Origin: Glycomyces salinus
Lineage (GTDB): Bacteria > Actinomycetota > Actinomycetes > Mycobacteriales > Micromonosporaceae
Assembly (NCBI RefSeq): GCF_016428645.1
Contig: NZ_JAELXW010000008.1
Coordinates: forward strand, 62,001 to 126,000
Reading direction: 5' to 3'
DNA: 64,000 bases
Positions within the stretch are counted from its first letter, which is position 1. Each line of letters opens with the position of its first letter. The position numbers and the translations under genes were made by a program. The notes beneath the pieces were generated by a model. It was not told where the DNA came from and did no database searches. It worked only from the letters and a program-made list of their open reading frames with translations. This document shows, piece by piece, positions 30,399 to 42,162 of the stretch.

Positions 30399-31367
30399 GT
30401 GATCGAGTTGCAGTTGTCCGTCGCAGATCTGGCCAACACGAGGTTCGCGCTCTCACCGCTGTGGGAGGTCGTCGCCAGTATCAGGGTGCTCAAGGCGCCC
30501 GGGGAGCACCTGCTCCACCGCCGTTGGGTCGGCCGCGCCGCCCAGCGCCTGCGCGGGGCCGACCTGCGACAGCTGTTCGACCTAGTCCCGGTGCCGACCG
30601 CGAGCCTGCCCGCCTTCCTGGCCCCGCCCCCGGCGACCTCGACGCCCGATTTCGGAACCGAGCTGGCCGCGGTGCGGGCCCTGGACACCGGCCTGATCCG
30701 GGACGGCTTGGAAGCGCTGCCGCCCACGCCCGCCGTTGAACGGTTCCGCGAGGACGTCCCCGCCGGGCTCGAACGCCTCGCCACGGCGATCGAAACCTAC
30801 TGGGAGGCGGCGCTCGCTCCGTGGTGGCCCCGGATCCGCACCCTCTGCGAGAGCGATCTGCTGTACCGCTCGCGGGTGCTGGCCGAAGGCGGCGCGCGGC
30901 GGCTGTTCGCCGACCTCGACCCGCGGGTCTCCTGGGACGCCGGCGGGACGCTGCGGATCGAGAACCCGCTGTTCGACCGCACCGAGCCGCTGGGCGGGCG
31001 CGGCCTGCTGCTGGTGCCGTCCGTCTTCGGCGGCGAACGCATCTTCTCGGTCTCGGCCGAGCCGTGGCAGCCGACGGTGCGATACTCCCCCAGGGGCCTC
31101 GGCCTGCTGTGGCGGGCGCCCGACCGGGAGGCGGAGGCGGGATTGGTCGGCGTCGTCGGCCCGACCCGCGCCGCCCTGCTCACCGCGTTGAGCGAACCGG
31201 CCACGACCACCGAGCTCGCGACGCGATGCCGCCTGAGCGCGGGCGGGGTCTCGCAGCAGCTGCGGCTCCTGCTCCGGGCCGGACTGGTGACCCGGCACCG
31301 CATCGGGCGGCGCGTCCTGTATGCGCGGACCCTCGCCGCCGAATCCCTGCTCGAAGCCGGGGAATGA
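30399..31367 (+). CDS. ArsR-family regulator with N-terminal DUF5937
   Basis: 322 residues. The N-terminal ~230 residues (ELQLSVADLANTRFALSPLW; SVFGGERIFSV) match the DUF5937 sensory part common in actinobacteria. The C-terminal winged helix (TTTELATRCRLSAGGVSQQL, LLRAGLVTRHRIGRRVLYAR) is ArsR-type. GTG 30399 is the start, right after the palindrome. No metal-binding Cys cluster is visible, so the ligand is probably an organic compound exported by the divergent MFS protein. Confidence 0.87.
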   Translation: MIELQLSVADLANTRFALSPLWEVVASIRVLKAPGEHLLHRRWVGRAAQRLRGADLRQLFDLVPVPTASLPAFLAPPPATSTPDFGTELAAVRALDTGLIRDGLEALPPTPAVERFREDVPAGLERLATAIETYWEAALAPWWPRIRTLCESDLLYRSRVLAEGGARRLFADLDPRVSWDAGGTLRIENPLFDRTEPLGGRGLLLVPSVFGGERIFSVSAEPWQPTVRYSPRGLGLLWRAPDREAEAGLVGVVGPTRAALLTALSEPATTTELATRCRLSAGGVSQQLRLLLRAGLVTRHRIGRRVLYARTLAAESLLEAGE

Positions 31368-31434
31368 GACCTCATCGACCTCATCCACAGTAGCCTCTCC
31401 GTGGGCGTCCCTCGATGGCTGCGAGAATGCGGGC

Positions 31435-32574
31435 GTGGGCATTGAAACGCAGTTGCGGCGGGCCATCACCGTCTTCCGGTTCGCCGCGCTCGGCTACCCG
31501 CTGGTGATGTGCGCGATCCTGTTCGGGGTCCTCGTCCGCCCGGTCACGGCGCTGCTCCTGGTCGCCTCGATCGCGCTGTGGACGTGGCTGGTCAGCGCCT
31601 CCTATGCGCGCCACGGGTTCAAGACGAGCCTGCTCTACGCCGACCTGGCCGCCACCGTGGCGGCGGTGGTGGCTTCGGCCTGGGCCCTGGAACTGTCCGA
31701 CCGGACCGCCGGGATCTCGGTCGGGCCGTGGCAGGCCGGGGCGGTGCTGGTGTGGGCGGTCTCGGGAGGCCGCCGCCGCGGCGTGATCGCGGCGGCCGTC
31801 ATCTCGGCGGTCACCATGCTCTTCCGCGGCGGGATCAACGAGAACACCGTCAGCGAGGCGATCCTGCTGATCCTGACCGGCCTGATGGTCGGGCACCTGA
31901 CCCGGCTCGCGGTCGAGGCCGAGCGGCGGATGCGGCAGGCCGCCGCCCGGTCGGCCGCGGCCCGCGAGCGCGAGCGGCTGGCCCGCGACATCCACGACTC
32001 GGTGCTCCAGGTGCTCGCGCTGGTCCAGCGGCGCGGCAACGAGGTCGGCGGGGAGGCCGCCGAGCTGGGGCGGCTGGCGGGCCAGCAGGAGGAGGCGCTG
32101 CGGACCCTGATCAGCTCCGAGTCCTACCGCCATCCCCTCGACGGGCAGCGGGACGTGCGCGAGCTGCTGGGGAAGCACTCCGGGGAGTCGGTCACGATCG
32201 CCGCCCCGGCCGTGCCGGTGCGGCTGCCCTCCCGTTACGCCCACCAGTTGGCCGCGGCCGTCTCCAGCGCCCTGGACAACGTCCGCGAGCACTGCCCGGA
32301 GGGCACGCACGCCTGGATGCTGGTCGAGGACGACCGCAACGCGGTCACCGTCACCGTCCGCGACAACGGCCCCGGCATGGCCCCGGGCAGGCTCGCCGAG
32401 GCGGCAGCCGAGGGGCGCCTGGGGGTGGCCCAGTCGATCCAGGGCAGAATCGAGGAACTGGGCGGCGAGGTCGTCGTCGTCTCGGCGCCGGGCGCCGGGA
32501 CGGAAGTGGAGATGCGGATGCCGCGTCCCAGACCGAAGGCGGGAGGCCATGGCGACACTGATGGTGGTCGATGA
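31435..32574 (+). CDS. Membrane sensor histidine kinase (MacS/NarX-like)
   Basis: 379 residues. Residues ~1-160 hold five to six transmembrane helices. A HisKA_3 helix (ARERERLARDIHDSVLQVLA, His187) follows, then a HATPase domain with SSALDNVREH and DNGPGMAPG. The start is GTG 31435 (GIETQLRRAI...), since the frame upstream overlaps the ArsR tail. The stop lies 26 bases inside the response regulator gene, so the two are coupled. The signal is unknown; the N-terminus resembles the DUF5931 region of Streptomyces MacS-type kinases. Confidence 0.87.
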   Translation: MGIETQLRRAITVFRFAALGYPLVMCAILFGVLVRPVTALLLVASIALWTWLVSASYARHGFKTSLLYADLAATVAAVVASAWALELSDRTAGISVGPWQAGAVLVWAVSGGRRRGVIAAAVISAVTMLFRGGINENTVSEAILLILTGLMVGHLTRLAVEAERRMRQAAARSAAARERERLARDIHDSVLQVLALVQRRGNEVGGEAAELGRLAGQQEEALRTLISSESYRHPLDGQRDVRELLGKHSGESVTIAAPAVPVRLPSRYAHQLAAAVSSALDNVREHCPEGTHAWMLVEDDRNAVTVTVRDNGPGMAPGRLAEAAAEGRLGVAQSIQGRIEELGGEVVVVSAPGAGTEVEMRMPRPRPKAGGHGDTDGGR

Positions 32575-33187
32575 CCACCCGATCTGGCGCGACGCGATCA
32601 GCCGGGACCTCGGGGAGGCCGGGCACGAGGTCGTCGCCTGCCTGGGCGAGGGACGGCAGGCCCTGACCGCGATCCGCCAGCACCAGCCGCAGGTGGCGAT
32701 CCTCGACCTCCAGCTTCCCGACCTCTCCGGCGTGGAGGTCCTGCGCGCTCTCGGCGAGGACTGCAGCACCGAGGTGCTGGTGCTGTCGGCCAGCGGGGAG
32801 TCCGACGACGTCCTGGAGGCGGTCAAGGCCGGAGCCCGCGGCTACCTGCTGAAATCGGCCAGCACCGCCGAGCTGCTGGAGGCGGTCGAGCGGGTCGCGG
32901 CCGGGGACGCGGTCTTCACTCCGGGCCTGGCCGGGCTGGTGCTGGGCGAGTACCGCCGCCTGGCCGGCGCCCCCGCCGAGGAGCAGCGGCCGCGCCTGTC
33001 CGAGCGCGAGACCGAGGTGCTGCGCCTGGTCGCCAAGGGGTTGACGTACAAGGAGATCGCCGCGCGACTGTACCTGTCGCCCCGGACGGTGCAGAACCAC
33101 GTGCAGCGCACGCTGGGCAAACTCCAGCTGCACAACCGCGCCCAGCTGGTGCGGTACGCGATCGAGCACGGCATCGACGAAGCGTGA
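32549..33187 (+). CDS. NarL/LuxR-family response regulator
   Basis: 212 residues. The receiver domain has VVDDH at residues 6-10, phosphoacceptor Asp53 (ILDLQLPD) and GYLLKSAS with the conserved Lys. The LuxR helix-turn-helix (LSERETEVLRLVAKGLTYKE, LSPRTVQNHV) is C-terminal. It partners the kinase encoded directly upstream. Its recognition helix (SPRTVQNHVQ) differs from that of the DevR protein, so it should not read the GGGACC boxes. Confidence 0.93.
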   Translation: MATLMVVDDHPIWRDAISRDLGEAGHEVVACLGEGRQALTAIRQHQPQVAILDLQLPDLSGVEVLRALGEDCSTEVLVLSASGESDDVLEAVKAGARGYLLKSASTAELLEAVERVAAGDAVFTPGLAGLVLGEYRRLAGAPAEEQRPRLSERETEVLRLVAKGLTYKEIAARLYLSPRTVQNHVQRTLGKLQLHNRAQLVRYAIEHGIDEA

Positions 33188-33283
33188 ACTGAGTACTTTC
33201 GCTCAATCCCCTGAGTAGTACGCACCGGTAACTCAAGCTGGTTCGCCGATGCGCTCCGGCCCGGGATGCGGCCGAATAGAGGT

Positions 33284-34444
33284 ATGACCACCGCAGCCCC
33301 CAGCCCCCCGCGAAGCGCCCTGGCTTCCCGGCTCGACGCGATCCTGGACTCCGGCCGCCTGCCGGGGCGCGTCGGCGCCGTCTTCGCCGAGGCCGACAGC
33401 GGACGGATCCTCTACGAGCGCGACCCCGACCGGCTGCTCACCCCGGCCTCGGCGCTCAAGGTCGCCACCGCCGTCGCCGCCGCACACCGGCTCGGCCACC
33501 AGCACCGCATCCCCACGTCCCTCGCCGAGGCCGGCGGCGACGCCGTCGCACTCCTGGCCGGAGGAGACGTCACGCTGAGCCGCAACGGCATCGGCCACTA
33601 TCCCGGTGCGGCGAGCCTCGGCCGCCTCGCGCGGACGGCCCTGGTCGCCCGGGGCGGCCGGACGCCGCGCACCCTCATCGTCGACCCCGCCGCCCGGGGT
33701 GCCGCCCCTGCACCGGGGACCGATCCGGAGGACCTGCGCCACGCCACCGCACCGATGGCGCCGATCATGCTCAACGGCGGCCGCCTCCGGCGCACCCACG
33801 ACCGCCGCCGCCACTCCCCCGGCGCGGTGGCCGTGCGCAGCCTGAGCCGGATGCTCGACATCGACCGCGTCCTCGAGCTCCCGGTCGATCCGGTCTCGGC
33901 CCCGATCGCGACCGTGTGGTCGCCTCCCATGTCCGTCCTCATCGGCCATATGCTGCGGGAGTCGGACAACACCCTCGCCGACGCGATCGCGCTGCGACTG
34001 GCCGAGAGCGCCACCGGCGCCCGCACCTGGACGGGGGTCGGCCGCGCCGTCACCGCCGCGCTGGACGAGATCGGAGTGGACTGCGCGGGCGCGGCCATCG
34101 TGGACGGCTCGGGGCTGTCCCGCGCCGACCACTGCACGGCCGCCTTCCTCACCGACCTGCTGATAGCCGCCTGGAACCGGCCGCGGCTGCGTCCGATCCT
34201 CCAGACTCTGCCGATGGCCGGGGAGACCGGCACCCTCCGCGACCGGTTCGCCCACGCCCCGGAGGCGGTCGGCGCCGTCCGCGCCAAGACCGGCACGCTC
34301 ACCGGGGTCGCCTCCCTGTGCGGCGTCGCCACCGGGCCCCGCCCCATCGCCTTCGCCATTCTCAGCGGAGGCGTCACCGACCAGACGGCCGCCCGCGCCG
34401 CACTCGACGAGGCCGCCGCGGCGGCCGTGGACTTCAGGGAGTAG
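33284..34444 (+). CDS. D-Ala-D-Ala carboxypeptidase-like protein (PBP4/DacB fold) without signal peptide
   Basis: 386 residues. All three penicillin-interacting motifs are present: SxxK (Ser56-ALK59), SDN (227-229) and KTG (335-337). The length is that of class C low-mass PBPs of the DacB family. The N-terminus (TTAAPSPPRSALASRLDAI) has no hydrophobic signal, unlike typical DacB, so it may be exported by another route or act inside the cell on a non-cell-wall substrate. It ends 4 bases before the ketosynthase fusion gene, so they likely form an operon. Confidence 0.85.
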   Translation: MTTAAPSPPRSALASRLDAILDSGRLPGRVGAVFAEADSGRILYERDPDRLLTPASALKVATAVAAAHRLGHQHRIPTSLAEAGGDAVALLAGGDVTLSRNGIGHYPGAASLGRLARTALVARGGRTPRTLIVDPAARGAAPAPGTDPEDLRHATAPMAPIMLNGGRLRRTHDRRRHSPGAVAVRSLSRMLDIDRVLELPVDPVSAPIATVWSPPMSVLIGHMLRESDNTLADAIALRLAESATGARTWTGVGRAVTAALDEIGVDCAGAAIVDGSGLSRADHCTAAFLTDLLIAAWNRPRLRPILQTLPMAGETGTLRDRFAHAPEAVGAVRAKTGTLTGVASLCGVATGPRPIAFAILSGGVTDQTAARAALDEAAAAAVDFRE

Positions 34445-34448
34445 CACC

Positions 34449-36260
34449 ATGACCGAGAACGCCTATCTGACCGGCGCCGGAGCCTATCTGCCCGGCGAAG
34501 CGGTCGGCAACGACCAGATGGCCGCCCGCCTCGGCGGCGTCGACGACCGCGGCGAGCGCCTGCGCCGACGCGTCCTGGCCTCCAACGGCATCGCCGCCCG
34601 CCACTACGCGCTCGACGCCGAGGGCCGCACCACCGAACTCAACGAGGAGCTGGCCGCCAAGGCGATCGGCGCCGCCCTCGCCGACCGCGACCTGGACGCC
34701 GCCGACCTCGACATGCTCGCCACCGCCACCACCCAGGGCGACCTGCTCGTCCCCGGGTTCGCCTCGATGGTGCACGGCCGCCTCGGCGGCGGGCCGATGC
34801 ACCTGCTCTCGGCCTCCGGGGTGTGCGCCTCCAGCCTCGCCGCGCTCGACGCGGCCGTCGCCAAGGTCCGCCTCGGCGACCACGAGCGGGCCGCCGTGGT
34901 CGGCTCCGAACTGGCCAGCCGCTGGCTGCGGCGCTCCCGCCTGGACGGCGCCGAGGCCGACGCGGCGTTCCTGCGCTGGATGCTCTCCGACGGCGCCGGG
35001 GCCGTCATCGTCGAGCCCCGGCCGCGCCCCGGCCGGCCGTCGCTCCGCGTCGACTGGGTCCGGCACGTCTCCCTCGCCCACGAGCATCCGGTGTGCATGC
35101 GGGCCGGGCTCGGCGACGGCCTCGAACCGCGCGCCGGAGCCACCTGGCAGGACCTCGACCTGGAGGAGTCCGTGGCCTCCGGGATGATGCGGCTGCGGCA
35201 GGACACGAGCGCGCTCGGGCGCCTGGCCGAGGCCGGCCTGCGCGAGTTCCAGCGCCTGACCCGCGCCGGACTGGTCGACCTCGACCGGCTCGACCACGTG
35301 CTGTGCCACTACAGCACCCACGCGTTCCGCGACATCGTCTTCAAGCTGCTGGCCGACGCCGGAGCGGACGTCCGGACCGAGAAGTGGTTCTCCAACCTCG
35401 CCGAGAAGGGCAACACCGGGGCGGCCTCGATCTTCATCGCGCTCGAGGAGCGCTGGCGGTCCGGCGCGATCGAACCCGGGCAGACCGTGCTGCTCGCCGT
35501 CCCCGAATCCGGCCGCTTCTCCTTCGCCTTCGCCCACCTGACCTGCGTCGCCCCCGACGAAACGGAGCCCGTCATGCCCGCCCGGATCGAAGCGGCACCG
35601 GCCGCCCCCGAAAGCCTCCACGGCCGCCTCGACGAGGTCTGGCAGGACTTCGAGCGCCGCCTCGAACAGGTCCCGATCCTGCGCCGCCTCGACGAGGGCA
35701 CCGTTACCCGCCACGACTACATGCGTCTGCTGCACAACCTGCGCCAGCAGGTCGCCGACGGCGCCCGCTGGATCACGCGCGCCGCCTCGAACTTCTCGGT
35801 CGAGAACTTCACACTGCGCAGCAGCGCGATCCACCACGCCGACGAGGAGCACCGTGACTTCATGATGCTCGAACGCGACTACGTCGCCTGCGGCGGCGAC
35901 GCCGAGGACATCCGCTCCGGCGAGAAGAACCTCGGCTCCGAGGCCCTGTCGGCCTACATGTTCCACACCGCGAGCCGGCCCGACCCGGTCTGCCTGCTCG
36001 GGGCCATGTTCATCATCGAGGGCTTGGGCAACGGCAAGGCCGCCGAATGGGCCGTCCGCTTCCAGGAGGTGCTCGGCCTGCGCGACGACCAGGTGAGTTT
36101 CCTGCGCTACCACGGCATGGCCGACGAGGACCACTACGCGAAGCTCCAGAGCCTGCTCGCCTCCGAGCGGGTGAACCGGGAGGCCGACGCGATCGTCAAG
36201 ACCGCCAAGGTCGTCGCCCGCCTCTACGCGCTCCAGTTGGAGGAGCTCGATAATGTCTGA
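34449..36260 (+). CDS. Ketosynthase III (DarB/StlD-like) fused to haem-oxygenase-like di-iron domain
   Basis: 603 residues. Residues 1-~370 are a thiolase-fold KAS III. GAYLPGEAVGND, RRRVLASNGIAARHYALD and the triad Cys126 (ASGVCASS), His287 (CHYSTH) and Asn322 (KGNTGAAS) resemble the StlD/DarB ketosynthases of dialkylresorcinol and cyclohexanedione synthesis. Residues ~385-600 form a second, all-helical domain of the haem-oxygenase-like di-iron oxidase (CADD/UndA-type) superfamily. It has a Glu/His-rich helix (HHADEEH, 462-468), Glu524 (FIIEGLG) and the hallmark H555-x3-D559-x2-H562. A natural fusion of condensing enzyme and oxidase implies condensation followed by O2-dependent modification of the same acyl product. 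The next gene overlaps by 8 bases. Confidence 0.82.
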   Translation: MTENAYLTGAGAYLPGEAVGNDQMAARLGGVDDRGERLRRRVLASNGIAARHYALDAEGRTTELNEELAAKAIGAALADRDLDAADLDMLATATTQGDLLVPGFASMVHGRLGGGPMHLLSASGVCASSLAALDAAVAKVRLGDHERAAVVGSELASRWLRRSRLDGAEADAAFLRWMLSDGAGAVIVEPRPRPGRPSLRVDWVRHVSLAHEHPVCMRAGLGDGLEPRAGATWQDLDLEESVASGMMRLRQDTSALGRLAEAGLREFQRLTRAGLVDLDRLDHVLCHYSTHAFRDIVFKLLADAGADVRTEKWFSNLAEKGNTGAASIFIALEERWRSGAIEPGQTVLLAVPESGRFSFAFAHLTCVAPDETEPVMPARIEAAPAAPESLHGRLDEVWQDFERRLEQVPILRRLDEGTVTRHDYMRLLHNLRQQVADGARWITRAASNFSVENFTLRSSAIHHADEEHRDFMMLERDYVACGGDAEDIRSGEKNLGSEALSAYMFHTASRPDPVCLLGAMFIIEGLGNGKAAEWAVRFQEVLGLRDDQVSFLRYHGMADEDHYAKLQSLLASERVNREADAIVKTAKVVARLYALQLEELDNV

Positions 36261-37068
36261 CCCCTCGTTGTGGGACGCGGTCGAGGCCGACCCGACCCTG
36301 CCACTGGAGGCCGACGTGGCCCGCAAGGTCGTCGACGACCAGCGGCGCTGGAGTCGCACCTGGCTCTACCCGGTCGCGCGGCCCGTCTCGCGGATCACCG
36401 CGCTGCTGATCGTGGTCGCCAAGCGACTCACCCCGTTCCGCTGGACCGCCCACCGGACCATGGACCGGCTGTGCCTGTGGTTCCTGCGCCGCTTCGTGTC
36501 GGCGAACGCGGTCGAACTGCTGATCCGGCACTTCGTCATCGAGACGAACCTGCTGAACTTCATCATCCGCAACACCGGCGCGCCCGGCCTCGAGCCGGTG
36601 TCGCTCCGGCCGACCACCCTGTCGGGCCTGGGCGACCGCGCCGTCATCGAGCACGACATCAACGTCTACGACGTCCTGTCCGCCCTCGGTCCGGTCCCCA
36701 GGGAGAAGCCCCTGCTCGACTACCGGGACCTGGAGATCCCCGAGCTCGACCCCGAACCGCGCAGGCGCCGCCTGCTCAACCTGGACATCCAGACCGCGCT
36801 GTGCCTGATGAACCTGCCGTTCGCACTCTGCCTGACCCCCGAGGAGTACCGGCGGGCCGTCCACTCCATGCGCTTCGACGACTCGATCCTGACGATCCTG
36901 GCCGAGATCACCGGCGACCCGGCGTTCCTCAAATGGCACCGGGGCGAACTGACCGTCAGGGTCGACTCCAACACCGACGTGCCCGAAGCGGTCTACCGCC
37001 ACGCCGTGATCTGCGAATACGCGCACGCCCACCTGCTCCGGGCCGCGGCCGAGCGGCGATCGGCTTGA
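36253..37068 (+). CDS. Uncharacterised protein coupled to the ketosynthase-oxidase fusion (DUF6999-like)
   Basis: 271 residues. ATG 36253 lies inside the end of the fusion gene, giving translational coupling. A hydrophobic stretch (ARPVSRITALLIVVAKRL, ~45-62) and another at FLRRFVSANAVELLIRHF suggest membrane association. A mid-region IRNTGAPGLEP, HDINVYDVLSALG and ALCLMNLPFALCLTPEEYRR are distinctive but show no catalytic motif I know. It resembles a family I recall only as uncharacterised (DUF6999), found beside such ketosynthases. A role in handling the lipid product or substrate is inference. Confidence 0.6.
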   Translation: MSDPSLWDAVEADPTLPLEADVARKVVDDQRRWSRTWLYPVARPVSRITALLIVVAKRLTPFRWTAHRTMDRLCLWFLRRFVSANAVELLIRHFVIETNLLNFIIRNTGAPGLEPVSLRPTTLSGLGDRAVIEHDINVYDVLSALGPVPREKPLLDYRDLEIPELDPEPRRRRLLNLDIQTALCLMNLPFALCLTPEEYRRAVHSMRFDDSILTILAEITGDPAFLKWHRGELTVRVDSNTDVPEAVYRHAVICEYAHAHLLRAAAERRSA

Positions 37069-38965: not shown

Positions 38966-39030
38966 CACCCCTCTTGGCGGGCTCCGCCCGGGGCCGTGAG
39001 CGAACTTCTCAACGACGAGAGTGAGTTGTG

Positions 39031-42000
39031 ATGAACGTACGAGCACGGCCGGCGGCCCGGCTGCTGTGCGCGGCCGCCGCCGTCATGATGGCCCCCTGGG
39101 TCGCCGCGCCCGCGTCGGCGCAGACCGACGGGACCTTCAGAGTCGACTTCGGCGAGTCGACCGGAGACTTCCTCGGCGGTGCCTCCGGAACCCTGTACGG
39201 CCTCTACGACCAGGGGCTCCCCTCCCAGAACCTCATCGACGGCATCGACCTCCAGACCGTGTCCACCAAGGCCCAGGATGGCCCGCAGCACCCCGGCGCG
39301 GACGCGCTCGAAGTGCTCCCGGGGCTGGTGGAGGGGTCCGACGGCGACGTCTACATCTACATGACCGACATCCACCGGGGCTTCCCCTACCAGTGGCCGG
39401 GCGACACCCCCGAGGAGAAGCTCGACACCTACCTGGAGAAGATCCGCCTCCAAGCCGAGCAGGTCGCCACCCTCCCGGCCGACCAGCGCGACAACCTCGT
39501 GTTCATGCCGTTCAACGAGCCCGCGGGCAACATGTTCGGCACCGGCGAGTGGAGCTACAACGGCATCAGCTGGCTCGACGACCCGCAGTACTTCTTCGAC
39601 GGCTGGGACCGCGCCTACGAGACGATCCACTCGGTGCTGCCCGAGGCGCGGATCGGCGGACCGAACTCCATCCACCTCTACGACCAGGTCCGCGGGTTCA
39701 TGGAGTACACGATCCAGGCCGGCACCGTCCCCGACGTGGTGGTGTGGCACGAACTGTCCGACCCGGCGACCATCCGCGACAGCGTCGACCGCTACCGCGG
39801 CTGGGAGACCGAGTTCTTCGCCGGAACCCAGTACGAGGGCACCGAGCTGCCGATCAACATCAGCGAATACGCCTACAACTACCACACCTCGGTGCCCGGC
39901 CAGATGATCCAGTGGGTCTCGGCGCTGGAGGACTCCAAGGTCTACGGCGACATCGCCTACTGGAACATCGACGGCAACCTCTCCGACTCGGCCGTGCAGG
40001 CCAACCGCGCCAACGGGCAATGGTGGCTGCTCCACGCCTACAGCCAGATGAGCGGGCAGACCGTCGAGACCACCCCGCCCCGGCCCGGGGAGAGCTACAC
40101 CCTCCAGGGCGTGGCGACCCTCGACACCGGCCTGAAGCAGGGCCGCGTCCTGCTCGGCGGGGCCGGCGGCTCGTACACCCTGGGCCTGGACGACCTGCCC
40201 ACGGAGGTCTTCGGCGACACGGTCCACGCGGTCGTGCGCGAGATCGGCTGGAGCGGCCAGATCGGGGACTCCGCGCAGCCCGACACCATCGGCGAACTCG
40301 ACCTGACCGTCCAAGGCGGCACCGCCGAGGTCACCTTCGGTGACCAGCTGCCCGAACTGAACGCCGAATCGGCCTACGAGGTCATCCTGACTCCGAGCGC
40401 CTCCCCGGGCGAGACCGGCGAGTCCCGCACCTCGTGGGAGGCCGCCTACGAGGCCGAGGATGCGACGTTCACCGGAGAGGGCCTGCACGTCAACGGCCCC
40501 GAGGGATCGCCTTCGAACGTCTCGAAGTTCTACACCTCCGGTTCGTACAACGTCGGCGGCATGCGAACCGGTTCGCACAACTCCCTGGAGTTCTCGGTGA
40601 GCGTGCCCGAGGACGGCACCTACGACCTCAGCGTCTTCGCCAGCTCGCTCAACACCGACGAGCAGGTGCAGGACCAGGGACCGACCAACGTGTTCCTCAG
40701 CGTCGACGGCGATCCGGCGACCGAGCGGGAGCTGTTCCTGACCCTCGGATACAAGTGGGTGGTGTGGGACCACACCGACACCACCGTGGACCTGACCGCC
40801 GGCGACCACGTCATCTCCCTGTCGACCGACGCCCTCGAGGGCGAGGGCTCGATCACCGGCGACGTCATCGTCGACAAGATCGACCTCTCGCTGGCCAACC
40901 CCGCGTACGGCGGCGACGTCTACGAGGCCGAACTGGCCGAGCTGACCGGCGGGGCCGCGCCGGTCTACCCGGAGGGGCACCAGGGCTCCGGTCCGGGCGC
41001 CGCCGAGGTGCCCTCGGGCGGCGAGGCGACCTTCTGGGTCTACTCCCCCGACGACGGTCCCGCCCGCCTGGACGTCGACTCTCGGGGCGATCGCGCCGTG
41101 GAGCTCGAGGTCAACGGCGAGCCCGTCACCACCGGCCCCGGCGGGATGGTCGACGCGTTCCTGCTCGGCGGCATCAACAAGGTGACCGTCCACGGGGAGA
41201 ACGGCCTGGCGGTCGACCGCCTGGCGGTCGGAACCACCGGGGATGTCGATACGGCCGTGTACGAGGCCGAGGACGGGACCGCCTCCGGGACCGCGCAGGT
41301 CGAGGACCTGTCGCTGGCCTCCGGCGGCCAGGCCGTGGTCGGCGTCGGCGGCGAACCCGGCAACGGGAACACCCTCTCGTTCACCGACGTCGAGGCGCCC
41401 GAGGCCGGACGGTACGCGGTGACCTTCCGCTACTCGAACGAGGAGCAGTCGCCGGCCACCCACTACAACCCCGACCCGGTGGCGCGGTACGCGCTCGTGT
41501 CCGTCAACGGCGGCGAACCGGTTCGCGTGGCGTTCCCGCACTCGTTCCACGAGAACAACTTCTGGGAGCTGACAGTGCCGTTCGACCTCCAAGAGGGGGC
41601 CAACGAGATCGTGGTGCGCGGCGAGGAGAAGCCCCAGTTCGACGGCGTCAGCTACGCCTCCGACAACTGGCCGGACGTCCTGCTGCGCTCGCAGTTCGCG
41701 CCCAACCTCGACCGGATCGCCGTCACGCCGCTGTTCGGCGACCCCGCGTCGTACCGGTTGCAGTCCCATAATTTCACCGACCGGCACGTCCGCCACACGG
41801 ACAACGATATCCGCCTGGAGGCCGACGTCAGCCCCGCCGAGGACGCCCGGTTCCGGATCGCCCCCGGCCTGGCCGACTCCTCGGACGGGATGGTGTCGTT
41901 CGAATCGGTGAACCACCCGGGACAGTACCTGCGCCACTCGGACTTCGAGCTGGTGCTGGCGCCCGACGACGGCACCGCGCTGTTCGACCAGGACGCGACC

Positions 42001-42162
42001 TTCGAACTGGTCGAGGGCCTCGCCGACGAGTGGTGCGTCTCGCTCCGCGCGCACAACTACCCCGACCAGGTCGTCCGACACTCGTACTTCGACCTGCGGC
42101 TCGATCCGGACGACGGCACGGGCCTGTTCGCCGAGGACGCGACCTACTGCCTCACCGACTGA
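39031..42162 (+). CDS. Large secreted modular glycosidase with CBM and AbfB (CBM42) domains
   Basis: 1043 residues: signal peptide (cleavage after ...APASA), a (beta/alpha)8 glycosidase domain to ~residue 430 with VFMPFNEPAGNMF (acid/base Glu) and LPINISEYAYNY (nucleophile Glu) in a GH39-like arrangement, one or two CBM6/35-like beta-sandwich modules starting at AAYEAEDATFTGEG and VYEAEDGTASGTA, and a C-terminal AbfB domain (SYRLQSHNFTDRHVRH; NHPGQYLRHSDFEL; HNYPDQVVRHSYFDL). AbfB binds arabinofuranose side chains, so the substrate is probably arabinan or arabinoxylan. ATG 39031 follows GTG 39028; either could start. LacI-type palindromes occur twice in the promoter and twice inside the gene. 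Confidence 0.85.
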   Translation: MNVRARPAARLLCAAAAVMMAPWVAAPASAQTDGTFRVDFGESTGDFLGGASGTLYGLYDQGLPSQNLIDGIDLQTVSTKAQDGPQHPGADALEVLPGLVEGSDGDVYIYMTDIHRGFPYQWPGDTPEEKLDTYLEKIRLQAEQVATLPADQRDNLVFMPFNEPAGNMFGTGEWSYNGISWLDDPQYFFDGWDRAYETIHSVLPEARIGGPNSIHLYDQVRGFMEYTIQAGTVPDVVVWHELSDPATIRDSVDRYRGWETEFFAGTQYEGTELPINISEYAYNYHTSVPGQMIQWVSALEDSKVYGDIAYWNIDGNLSDSAVQANRANGQWWLLHAYSQMSGQTVETTPPRPGESYTLQGVATLDTGLKQGRVLLGGAGGSYTLGLDDLPTEVFGDTVHAVVREIGWSGQIGDSAQPDTIGELDLTVQGGTAEVTFGDQLPELNAESAYEVILTPSASPGETGESRTSWEAAYEAEDATFTGEGLHVNGPEGSPSNVSKFYTSGSYNVGGMRTGSHNSLEFSVSVPEDGTYDLSVFASSLNTDEQVQDQGPTNVFLSVDGDPATERELFLTLGYKWVVWDHTDTTVDLTAGDHVISLSTDALEGEGSITGDVIVDKIDLSLANPAYGGDVYEAELAELTGGAAPVYPEGHQGSGPGAAEVPSGGEATFWVYSPDDGPARLDVDSRGDRAVELEVNGEPVTTGPGGMVDAFLLGGINKVTVHGENGLAVDRLAVGTTGDVDTAVYEAEDGTASGTAQVEDLSLASGGQAVVGVGGEPGNGNTLSFTDVEAPEAGRYAVTFRYSNEEQSPATHYNPDPVARYALVSVNGGEPVRVAFPHSFHENNFWELTVPFDLQEGANEIVVRGEEKPQFDGVSYASDNWPDVLLRSQFAPNLDRIAVTPLFGDPASYRLQSHNFTDRHVRHTDNDIRLEADVSPAEDARFRIAPGLADSSDGMVSFESVNHPGQYLRHSDFELVLAPDDGTALFDQDATFELVEGLADEWCVSLRAHNYPDQVVRHSYFDLRLDPDDGTGLFAEDATYCLTD
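40563..40576. promoter_or_regulatory. Intragenic copy 1 of GCGAACCGGTTCGC
   Basis: Perfect 14-bp palindrome identical to the promoter site at 38952, located 1.5 kb into the coding sequence (codons for MRTGSH). It may be an auxiliary operator for looping or a roadblock. Confidence 0.5.
41513..41526. promoter_or_regulatory. Intragenic copy 2 of GCGAACCGGTTCGC
   Basis: Second perfect copy inside the gene, 950 bases after the first (codons for GEPVRV, using the rare GTT for Val). Confidence 0.5.

What the first reader, a model, noticed from the sequence alone, without database searches (positions are those of the whole stretch)
34449..37068. Ketosynthase-dioxygenase fusion with a coupled unknown protein: candidate undescribed lipid/resorcinol-type pathway
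One polypeptide carries a complete DarB/StlD-like KAS III (Cys126, His287, Asn322) and a complete haem-oxygenase-like di-iron domain (Glu524, H555-x3-D559-x2-H562). HDO-fold enzymes of the UndA/CADD type perform oxidative C-C or N chemistry, while DarB-type ketosynthases make cyclohexanedione precursors. Covalent fusion suggests a condensed beta-ketoacyl or cyclic dione is oxidised directly by the attached domain, perhaps replacing the separate flavin aromatase of dialkylresorcinol pathways. The next gene overlaps by 8 bases, and a leaderless PBP-like protein precedes by 4 bases, giving a compact three-gene unit with no known model. First-helix metal ligands are uncertain (HHADEEH region).
Basis: partly seen in the sequence, partly recalled or inferred. 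Interest (0 to 1): 0.85.

Follow-up and report, generated by a model that had tools for sequence, protein, structure and literature searches.

The report
Conserved ketosynthase–diiron oxidase–DUF6999 module
One bacterial protein joins an enzyme that builds carbon rings or chains from fatty acids to an iron enzyme that probably oxidises the product; with one neighbouring protein of unknown fold it forms an apparently undescribed lipid-making unit kept together in at least eight bacterial phyla.

Summary
The fusion is real. Window 34449-36260 (+) encodes 603 aa: a StlD/DarB-like ketosynthase (Cys126-His287-Asn322, 53/53 aligned rows) plus a haem-oxygenase-like (HDO) domain. It is not a Glycomyces oddity: of 80 fetched relatives of the HDO domain, 79 also carry this ketosynthase and 78 carry DUF6999; the three misses lie near contig ends. 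KS and HDO are fused in 36 loci, separate genes elsewhere; fused and split states changed at least three times on a tree. The window's genome has one acyl carrier protein gene, beside fabH, so the KS probably draws on ordinary fatty-acid synthesis. In 16 of 20 non-actinobacterial loci a desaturase, hydroxylase or His-rich membrane-protein family lies in the flanks. The uncertain first-helix ligands are settled in sequence: H463-x3-E467-x2-D470, invariant in 38 rows; seven relatives have Tyr-x3-Glu-x2-His, so a histidine is lost at 470 and another gained at 463. DUF6999 is a confident helical model without a PDB match, with invariant His/Asp/Glu. The upstream penicillin-binding protein is not part of the unit; a MacS-type two-component system is the conserved upstream neighbour in Glycomyces. 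Product and chemistry (oxidation of a cyclic dione) remain inferred.

The parts
34449..35558 (+). Ketosynthase domain (residues 1-370) of the fusion, StlD/DarB-like KAS III; Cys126, His287, Asn322, also Glu154
35571..35606 (+). Disordered linker, residues 375-386 (pLDDT under 50)
35607..36260 (+). Haem-oxygenase-like dimetal (HDO) domain, residues 387-603 and stop; candidate ligands H463, E467, D470, E524, H555, D559, H562
36253..37068 (+). DUF6999 protein (271 aa), overlaps the fusion gene by 8 bases; invariant R92 H93 N107 P120 H134 D135 D178 D209 H250 E255 in 52 rows; no known fold
31321..32574 (+). MacS-family sensor histidine kinase; conserved upstream neighbour in Glycomyces and some Micromonosporaceae (possible regulator, not a core part); the ORF as listed may start too early
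32549..33187 (+). LuxR-type response regulator beside the kinase; conserved upstream neighbour
33266..34444 (+). PBP4/S13-type D-Ala-D-Ala carboxypeptidase homologue: adjacent but NOT part of the conserved module (found beside it in the window and L047 only)

Best explanation
A three-component lipid-biosynthesis module. The StlD/DarB-like ketosynthase takes acyl chains from ordinary fatty-acid synthesis (the window's genome has one ACP gene, beside fabH, and none in the module) and condenses them, most likely to a dialkyl-1,3-cyclohexanedione-type or other beta-dicarbonyl product. The fused or neighbouring HDO domain, a non-haem dimetal oxidase with a rearranged helix-1 ligand set, oxidises that product with O2, most simply by desaturation/aromatisation, doing the work of the aromatase DarA of known dialkylresorcinol pathways. 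DUF6999, a helical, perhaps membrane-attached protein with an invariant His/Asp/Glu set, acts on the same product, as a second metal enzyme or a docking/transfer partner. In many non-actinobacteria membrane desaturases or hydroxylases then modify the lipid. In Glycomyces the unit lies beside a MacS-type two-component system. Shown here: the parts, their conservation, co-occurrence and gene order. Inferred: every chemical step, the metal content and the regulation.
For: KS similarity to StlD over its whole length with the triad 53/53. HDO candidate ligands invariant in 38 rows. With the HDO alone as query, KS in 79 and DUF6999 in 78 of 80 loci. Pairwise distances of KS-HDO, KS-DUF6999 and HDO-DUF6999 correlate at 0.92, 0.96 and 0.90 over 44-45 rows. 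One PF00550 ACP in the own genome, at C113 next to the best KAS III match; a motif scan for ACPs in the flanks of 81 loci gave five matches, none recurring at one place. Desaturase/hydroxylase/His-rich membrane-protein clusters in the flanks of 16 of 20 non-actinobacterial loci. A Pseudoalteromonas plasmid carries hypothetical-KS-HDO-DUF6999 as a compact row. A DarB-like KS without HDO has a flavin monooxygenase beside it. [quoted passage not shown]
Against: The KS scores below NCBI's cut-off for StlD/DarB (328 against 450 bits; so does the flavin-type Streptomyces KS, 382 bits), so cyclising activity is not assured. No product, substrate or metal evidence. D470 replaces the usual helix-1 histidine; whether H463 takes its place is a sequence argument only, no coordinates were available. 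Absence of DarA was not tested with a DarA model. The flavin-type Streptomyces KS falls within the module tree on a long branch (one module clade neither supported nor rejected, p-AU 0.304). The distance correlation has no control for species history. In L100 no DUF6999 is seen in the 461 bases left behind the HDO. An alanine-dehydrogenase/PNT-like gene lies upstream in three flavobacterial loci, which this reading does not explain.
Confidence: 0.4

Rival explanations
1. The KS does a head-to-head or simple condensation without ring closure and the HDO cleaves or oxidatively decarboxylates the resulting beta-keto acid (UndA-like chemistry), giving a long-chain ketone, enone or alkene.
For: UndA, the first validated HDO, is a fatty-acid decarboxylase (PMC13108848: abstract in the listing, passages). 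The KS is below the DarB cut-off. Desaturases and hydroxylases nearby fit any long-chain product.
Against: The KS is closest to StlD among solved structures (that StlD forms a ring is recalled) and keeps Glu154 in 52 of 53 rows (its role in StlD is recalled, not looked up).
Confidence: 0.22
2. The module makes a nitrogen-containing lipid: the KS joins an acyl chain to an amine or amino acid and the HDO does N-oxygenation or a C-N rearrangement.
For: Several characterised HDOs act on amino acids or are N-oxygenases (PMC13108848). If H463 and D470 both bind, the 3H/4C count would match that of the N-oxygenase SznF. An alanine-dehydrogenase/PNT-like gene recurs upstream in three flavobacteria (L094, L108, L111), and proline-biosynthesis-like genes lie upstream in L110 and a PLP-type lyase downstream in L106.
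Against: These genes were each seen in a single lineage; no amino-acid enzyme was seen to recur across phyla, though most neighbours were not identified by family.
Confidence: 0.1
3. The HDO domain is not a turnover catalyst: it is a sensor, a substrate-binding chaperone for the KS, or a self-sacrificing enzyme as in CADD.
For: It lacks the usual helix-1 histidine; CADD shows self-sacrifice in this fold (PMC13108848).
Against: All seven candidate ligands are kept in 38 of 38 aligned rows, which a non-catalytic domain would hardly need.
Confidence: 0.1
4. The first reader's unit PBP + fusion + DUF6999 is the functional set, linking the lipid to cell-wall assembly.
For: 4-base spacing in the window.
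Against: Of 80 rows examined (the window and the 79 fetched loci with a KS), the PBP lies near the module only in the window and L047.
Confidence: 0.02

Closest known systems
StlD/DarB ketosynthases of dialkylresorcinol, flexirubin and isopropylstilbene pathways (Fuchs et al. 2013, seen only in reference lists; DarA listed as DAR-aromatase and DarB as DAR-cyclase in PMC3949708, passages read)
   Same: Same KAS III subfamily over the full length; catalytic triad and Glu154 conserved
   Different: Below the NCBIfam cut-off; fused to or paired with an HDO; DUF6999 in 78 of 80 loci; no ACP in the module of the window
HDO superfamily (UndA, CADD, SznF, BesC, PolF and others; PMC13108848, passages read)
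   Same: Family PF14518, E524 and H555-x3-D559-x2-H562
   Different: Helix 1 has H463-x3-E467-x2-D470 where seven relatives have Y-x3-E-x2-H; fused to a ketosynthase, a word that does not occur in that review's text
Thermostable-hemolysin / AMP-binding / HDO / SDR gene rows on proteobacterial plasmids (L126, L127, L129-L133)
   Same: HDO relatives outside the module (26 and 28% identity for L126 and L127) in a compact gene row
   Different: AMP-binding enzyme in place of the ketosynthase; E-x2-H in helix 1; no KS of this type and no DUF6999 in the two loci tested (L126, L127)
Streptomyces plasmid DarB-like cluster (L124)
   Same: DarB-like KS, 39% identical to the window's KS
   Different: ACPs, flavin monooxygenase, SCP2, FabF, P450; no HDO and no DUF6999

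Membership tests
StlD/DarB ketosynthase | Cys-His-Asn triad of KAS III | tested here: met
   53 of 53 rows
StlD/DarB ketosynthase | Score over NCBIfam cut-offs (NF005293 450 bits, NF053539 550 bits) | tested here: not met
   328 and 292 bits for the window; 320 to 434 bits (NF005293) for five relatives. A Prevotella and a Bacteroides KS without HDO score 492 and 490 on NF005293. Hence DarB-like, not filed as DarB
StlD/DarB ketosynthase | Makes 1,3-cyclohexanediones from acyl chains | not testable with these tools
   needs enzyme assay
HDO (haem-oxygenase-like dimetal oxidase) | PF14518 match and fold | tested here: met
   40 bits against a cut-off of 28.9; PDB 3dde 2.8e-10; confident all-helical model, (no fold search was made with this model)
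HDO (haem-oxygenase-like dimetal oxidase) | Ligand residues E and H-x3-D-x2-H in the later core helices | tested here: met
   E524, H555, D559, H562
HDO (haem-oxygenase-like dimetal oxidase) | Helix-1 carboxylate followed by histidine | tested here: inconclusive
   E467 kept 38/38, but D470 38/38 in place of the His found in 7 of 7 plasmid relatives; an extra His at 463, 38/38
HDO (haem-oxygenase-like dimetal oxidase) | Binds a dimetal cluster and activates O2 | not testable with these tools
   needs metal analysis and assay
Dialkylresorcinol (DAR) gene cluster | DarA-type aromatase with the DarB | tested here: inconclusive
   none seen among the neighbours identified, but no DarA model was run and most neighbours were not identified
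DUF6999 (PF22523) | Pfam model over cut-off | tested here: met
   288 bits against 27

The most novel reading that the evidence does not exclude
A so far undescribed, widely spread oxygen-dependent lipid pathway in which a ketosynthase hands its product directly to an attached haem-oxygenase-like dimetal oxidase with a rearranged (3H/4C) ligand set, and in which DUF6999 is a new fold of metalloenzyme, together making a class of (perhaps resorcinol-like) membrane lipids not yet seen.
Probability: 0.3. Interest if true: 0.88.

Novelty: new variant of a known kind. Interest (0 to 1): 0.66.

Why it matters
The module is kept together across at least eight phyla, so its product is probably worth making, yet no description of it was found in the open-access library by the searches made. 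It offers a test case for transfer from a ketosynthase to an oxidase within one polypeptide, a ligand arrangement in the HDO superfamily that differs from its relatives, and a first functional context for DUF6999. If the product is an aromatic lipid, it would be an iron-based solution to a step done by DarA in flexirubin and dialkylresorcinol pathways. The control-genome hits in Caulobacter vibrioides (DUF6999 and PF14518) suggest that a well-worked laboratory species may carry it; its gene order was not seen.

Tried and rejected
PBP4 as part of the unit: rejected. DUF6999 as a degenerate HDO: no profile similarity (E 0.29 over 14 columns) and no fold match (best E 1.7, TM 0.12, although that top-ranked chance match happened to be an HDO). 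DUF6999 among viral structures: nothing at E 0.001 or better. DUF6999 profile against PDB sequences: chance matches only. A first KS tree was spoilt by a fragmentary row (L064, 11% filled) and was repeated without it. A test that module KS form one clade was undecided. A model of the seven plasmid HDOs found none of the 30 actinobacterial PF14518 loci it was tried on; these were then read by motif, 29 of 30 gave a frame, and their helix 1 shows a carboxylate and a histidine at longer spacing; that agrees with 'histidine normally present' but is not an exact alignment. Looking for the spread in other phyla through genome handles failed. A DUF6999 profile on the three loci with a missing part found none in L100 or L071, as before.

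Not done: a fold search with the fusion model (KAS III structures would fill the list); a fold of the HDO domain alone (no jobs left); atomic distances (no coordinates are given out); a DarA search.

Full report
Observation. The ORF at 34449-36260 (+) encodes 603 aa, overlaps the next gene (36253-37068) by 8 bases and follows the upstream gene (33266-34444) after 4 bases. Pfam finds a KAS III and PF14518 'Haem_oxygenas_2'; NCBIfam places the KS nearest to the StlD/DarB family, 328 bits, below that model's cut-off of 450; the closest solved structure is ketosynthase StlD, 9.4e-64. The second domain matches PDB 3dde, a protein of unknown function with a haem-oxygenase-like fold, as the only hit of a single-sequence search and the only convincing one of a profile search. 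AlphaFold2 with 75 rows gives mean pLDDT 92.9 with a disordered linker at residues 375-386; pTM is 0.67, so the mutual placing of the domains is unsure. The next gene is DUF6999 (PF22523, 6.8e-86).

The true unit. The HDO domain alone was used as query in the species-genome collection: 227 relatives, best 80 fetched. In these 80 loci a KS of this type is present in 79 and DUF6999 in 78. L099 begins inside the HDO gene and L071 ends with it; in L100 the contig runs on for 461 bases behind the HDO and no DUF6999 is seen there, so L100 is undecided (in L110, another Bacteroidota locus, a desaturase stands between HDO and DUF6999). KS and HDO are one polypeptide in 36 loci and separate in the others. 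DUF6999 follows the HDO in the same direction within about 150 bases except in L095 (opposite strand), L110 and L113 (a gene between) and L115 (frame unclear). By record title, several being metagenome bins, the organisms include Actinomycetota, Cyanobacteriota/Melainabacteria, Bacteroidota, Chlorobiota, Myxococcota, Planctomycetota, Fidelibacterota and Pseudomonadota (L099, and plasmid locus L116). In 296 genomes of the window's phylum DUF6999 occurs in 3: the window's own and two others, both with KS and HDO next to it. In the window's family 35 of 150 genomes have a match, both domains in one open frame. Among 14 named control genomes only Caulobacter vibrioides has a DUF6999 match; it and Sulfolobus acidocaldarius have a PF14518 match.

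Fusion and fission. A careful KS tree of 52 rows needs three changes between fused and split, the same in the bootstrap trees (3 to 3), and the split forms of Micrococcales (with one Propionibacteriales bin) sit inside the fused actinobacterial forms. Pairwise distances correlate at 0.92 (KS-HDO), 0.96 (KS-DUF6999) and 0.90 (HDO-DUF6999) over 44 to 45 rows; no control for species history was made. Whether all module KS form one clade apart from a flavin-type Streptomyces KS is open (p-AU 0.304).

Carrier protein. The window's genome has one PF00550 match, at C113:17448, next to its best KAS III match at C113:17119, i.e. the ACP of ordinary fatty-acid synthesis. A motif scan of short frames in the flanks of 81 loci gave five matches at scattered places and none near the module in the window. 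So the KS probably uses fatty-acid-synthesis intermediates or CoA esters; this is inference.

Neighbours. The PBP4-like gene is near the module only in the window and in L047; the MacS-family kinase (403 bits, cut-off 300) and a response regulator lie upstream in 17 of 19 loci of Glycomyces plus Phytomonospora (window included) and in 2 of 4 other Micromonosporaceae loci, and downstream in L102. In Micrococcales no other gene stood out as recurring beside the module (automatic ORFs of 90 aa or more). Outside Actinomycetota, members of four clusters lie in the fetched flanks of 16 of 20 loci: PF04116 fatty-acid hydroxylases, two PF00487 desaturase clusters, and a roughly 200-aa His-rich hydrophobic protein without a Pfam match (clusters; Pfam tested on nine members of these clusters; alignment; hydrophobic segments). 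None of these four clusters has a member in the 60 actinobacterial loci. An alanine-dehydrogenase/PNT-like gene lies upstream in three flavobacterial loci, a P450 in L087. On plasmid pTHAF3_a the order is hypothetical (185 aa), KS, HDO, DUF6999, hypothetical (634 aa).

Metal site. In 38 aligned HDO domains E524, H555, D559 and H562 are invariant (A4 numbers shifted by 377). In helix 1 H463, E467 and D470 are also 38 of 38, H468 37 of 38. In seven plasmid relatives that sit in thermostable-hemolysin/AMP-binding/SDR gene rows the columns of 463, 467 and 470 read Tyr, Glu, His, 7 of 7 each (loci). The usual helix-1 histidine is thus Asp here and a new histidine stands one turn before the glutamate. 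By helix periodicity 463, 467 and 470 share a face, so a 3H/4C set is possible; this is inference, no coordinates were at hand. The review of HDOs (PMC13108848, passages read) gives 3H/3C as the majority and 3H/4C, with the extra Glu from an auxiliary helix, as first seen in SznF; the word ketosynthase does not occur in its text.

DUF6999. Model pLDDT 92.9, pTM 0.91, nearly all helical. Best PDB match E 1.7 with TM 0.12, so no known fold at this sensitivity. R92, H93, N107, P120, H134, D135, D178, D209, H250 and E255 are invariant in 52 rows; E97 43 of 52, H258 47 of 52. Except P120 they lie on or just beside five helices. A metal site is plausible but not shown. Hydropathy passes a simple membrane threshold around residues 33-55 in four of six sequences tried, not in the window's own, so membrane attachment is an inference.

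Mechanism. DarB is listed as cyclase and DarA as aromatase of dialkylresorcinol pathways (PMC3949708, passages); cyclohexanediones are intermediates (PMC4414361, passages). The module has a DarB-like KS and an oxidase but, among the neighbours identified, no flavin aromatase; a Streptomyces DarB-like KS without HDO has a flavin monooxygenase beside it, which is not thereby a DarA (one search places it nearest to other hydroxylases). Replacement of the aromatase by the HDO is therefore the simplest reading, at about 0.4, with linear-product chemistry as the main rival.

Novelty. In the open-access library no paper holds 'DUF6999', none holds 'ketosynthase III', 'heme oxygenase-like' and 'fusion' together, none joins 'iron-containing redox enzyme' with 'ketoacyl-ACP synthase III', and none holds three of five further terms; the listings showed no title on it. 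The 2015 PNAS paper on dialkylresorcinol signalling, recalled as surveying DarB-containing clusters, is not held, nor was Fuchs et al. 2013 seen, so an earlier mention there cannot be excluded.

Noticed in passing
33266-34444: PBP4/S13-type carboxypeptidase homologue with no obvious signal peptide by eye; near the module only in the window and in Glycomyces xiaoerkulensis (L047).
   Followed up: partly
31321-33187: MacS-family two-component system as the conserved upstream neighbour of a lipid module in Glycomyces; a possible link between MacRS-type signalling and envelope lipids.
   Followed up: partly
L126 3973-8124; L127 3880-8046; L129-L133: A recurring plasmid gene row in Proteobacteria: 'thermostable hemolysin', AMP-binding, 'iron-containing redox enzyme', SDR and a small protein, in that order in all seven annotated loci looked at.
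   Followed up: no
L093, L095, L098, L103, L104, L106, L112 (upstream of KS): A roughly 200-aa His-rich, hydrophobic protein family; two members scanned have no Pfam match; candidate membrane metal enzyme.
   Followed up: partly
L087 5527-6780: Cytochrome P450 directly upstream of the fused KS-HDO in a Neomarinimicrobiota bin.
   Followed up: no
39028-42162: Large protein with an AbfB (arabinofuranosidase B) domain and weak CBM6/35 matches downstream of the module; beside it in no other Glycomyces locus fetched.
   Followed up: no
L135-L164: An actinobacterial PF14518 family with D-E-[YFW]-G-x-G in helix 1 (29 loci read); 123 of 197 genomes of the class have some PF14518 match.
   Followed up: partly
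G000:C113:17119-17648: The only PF00550 ACP of the window's genome, next to its best KAS III match.
   Followed up: partly
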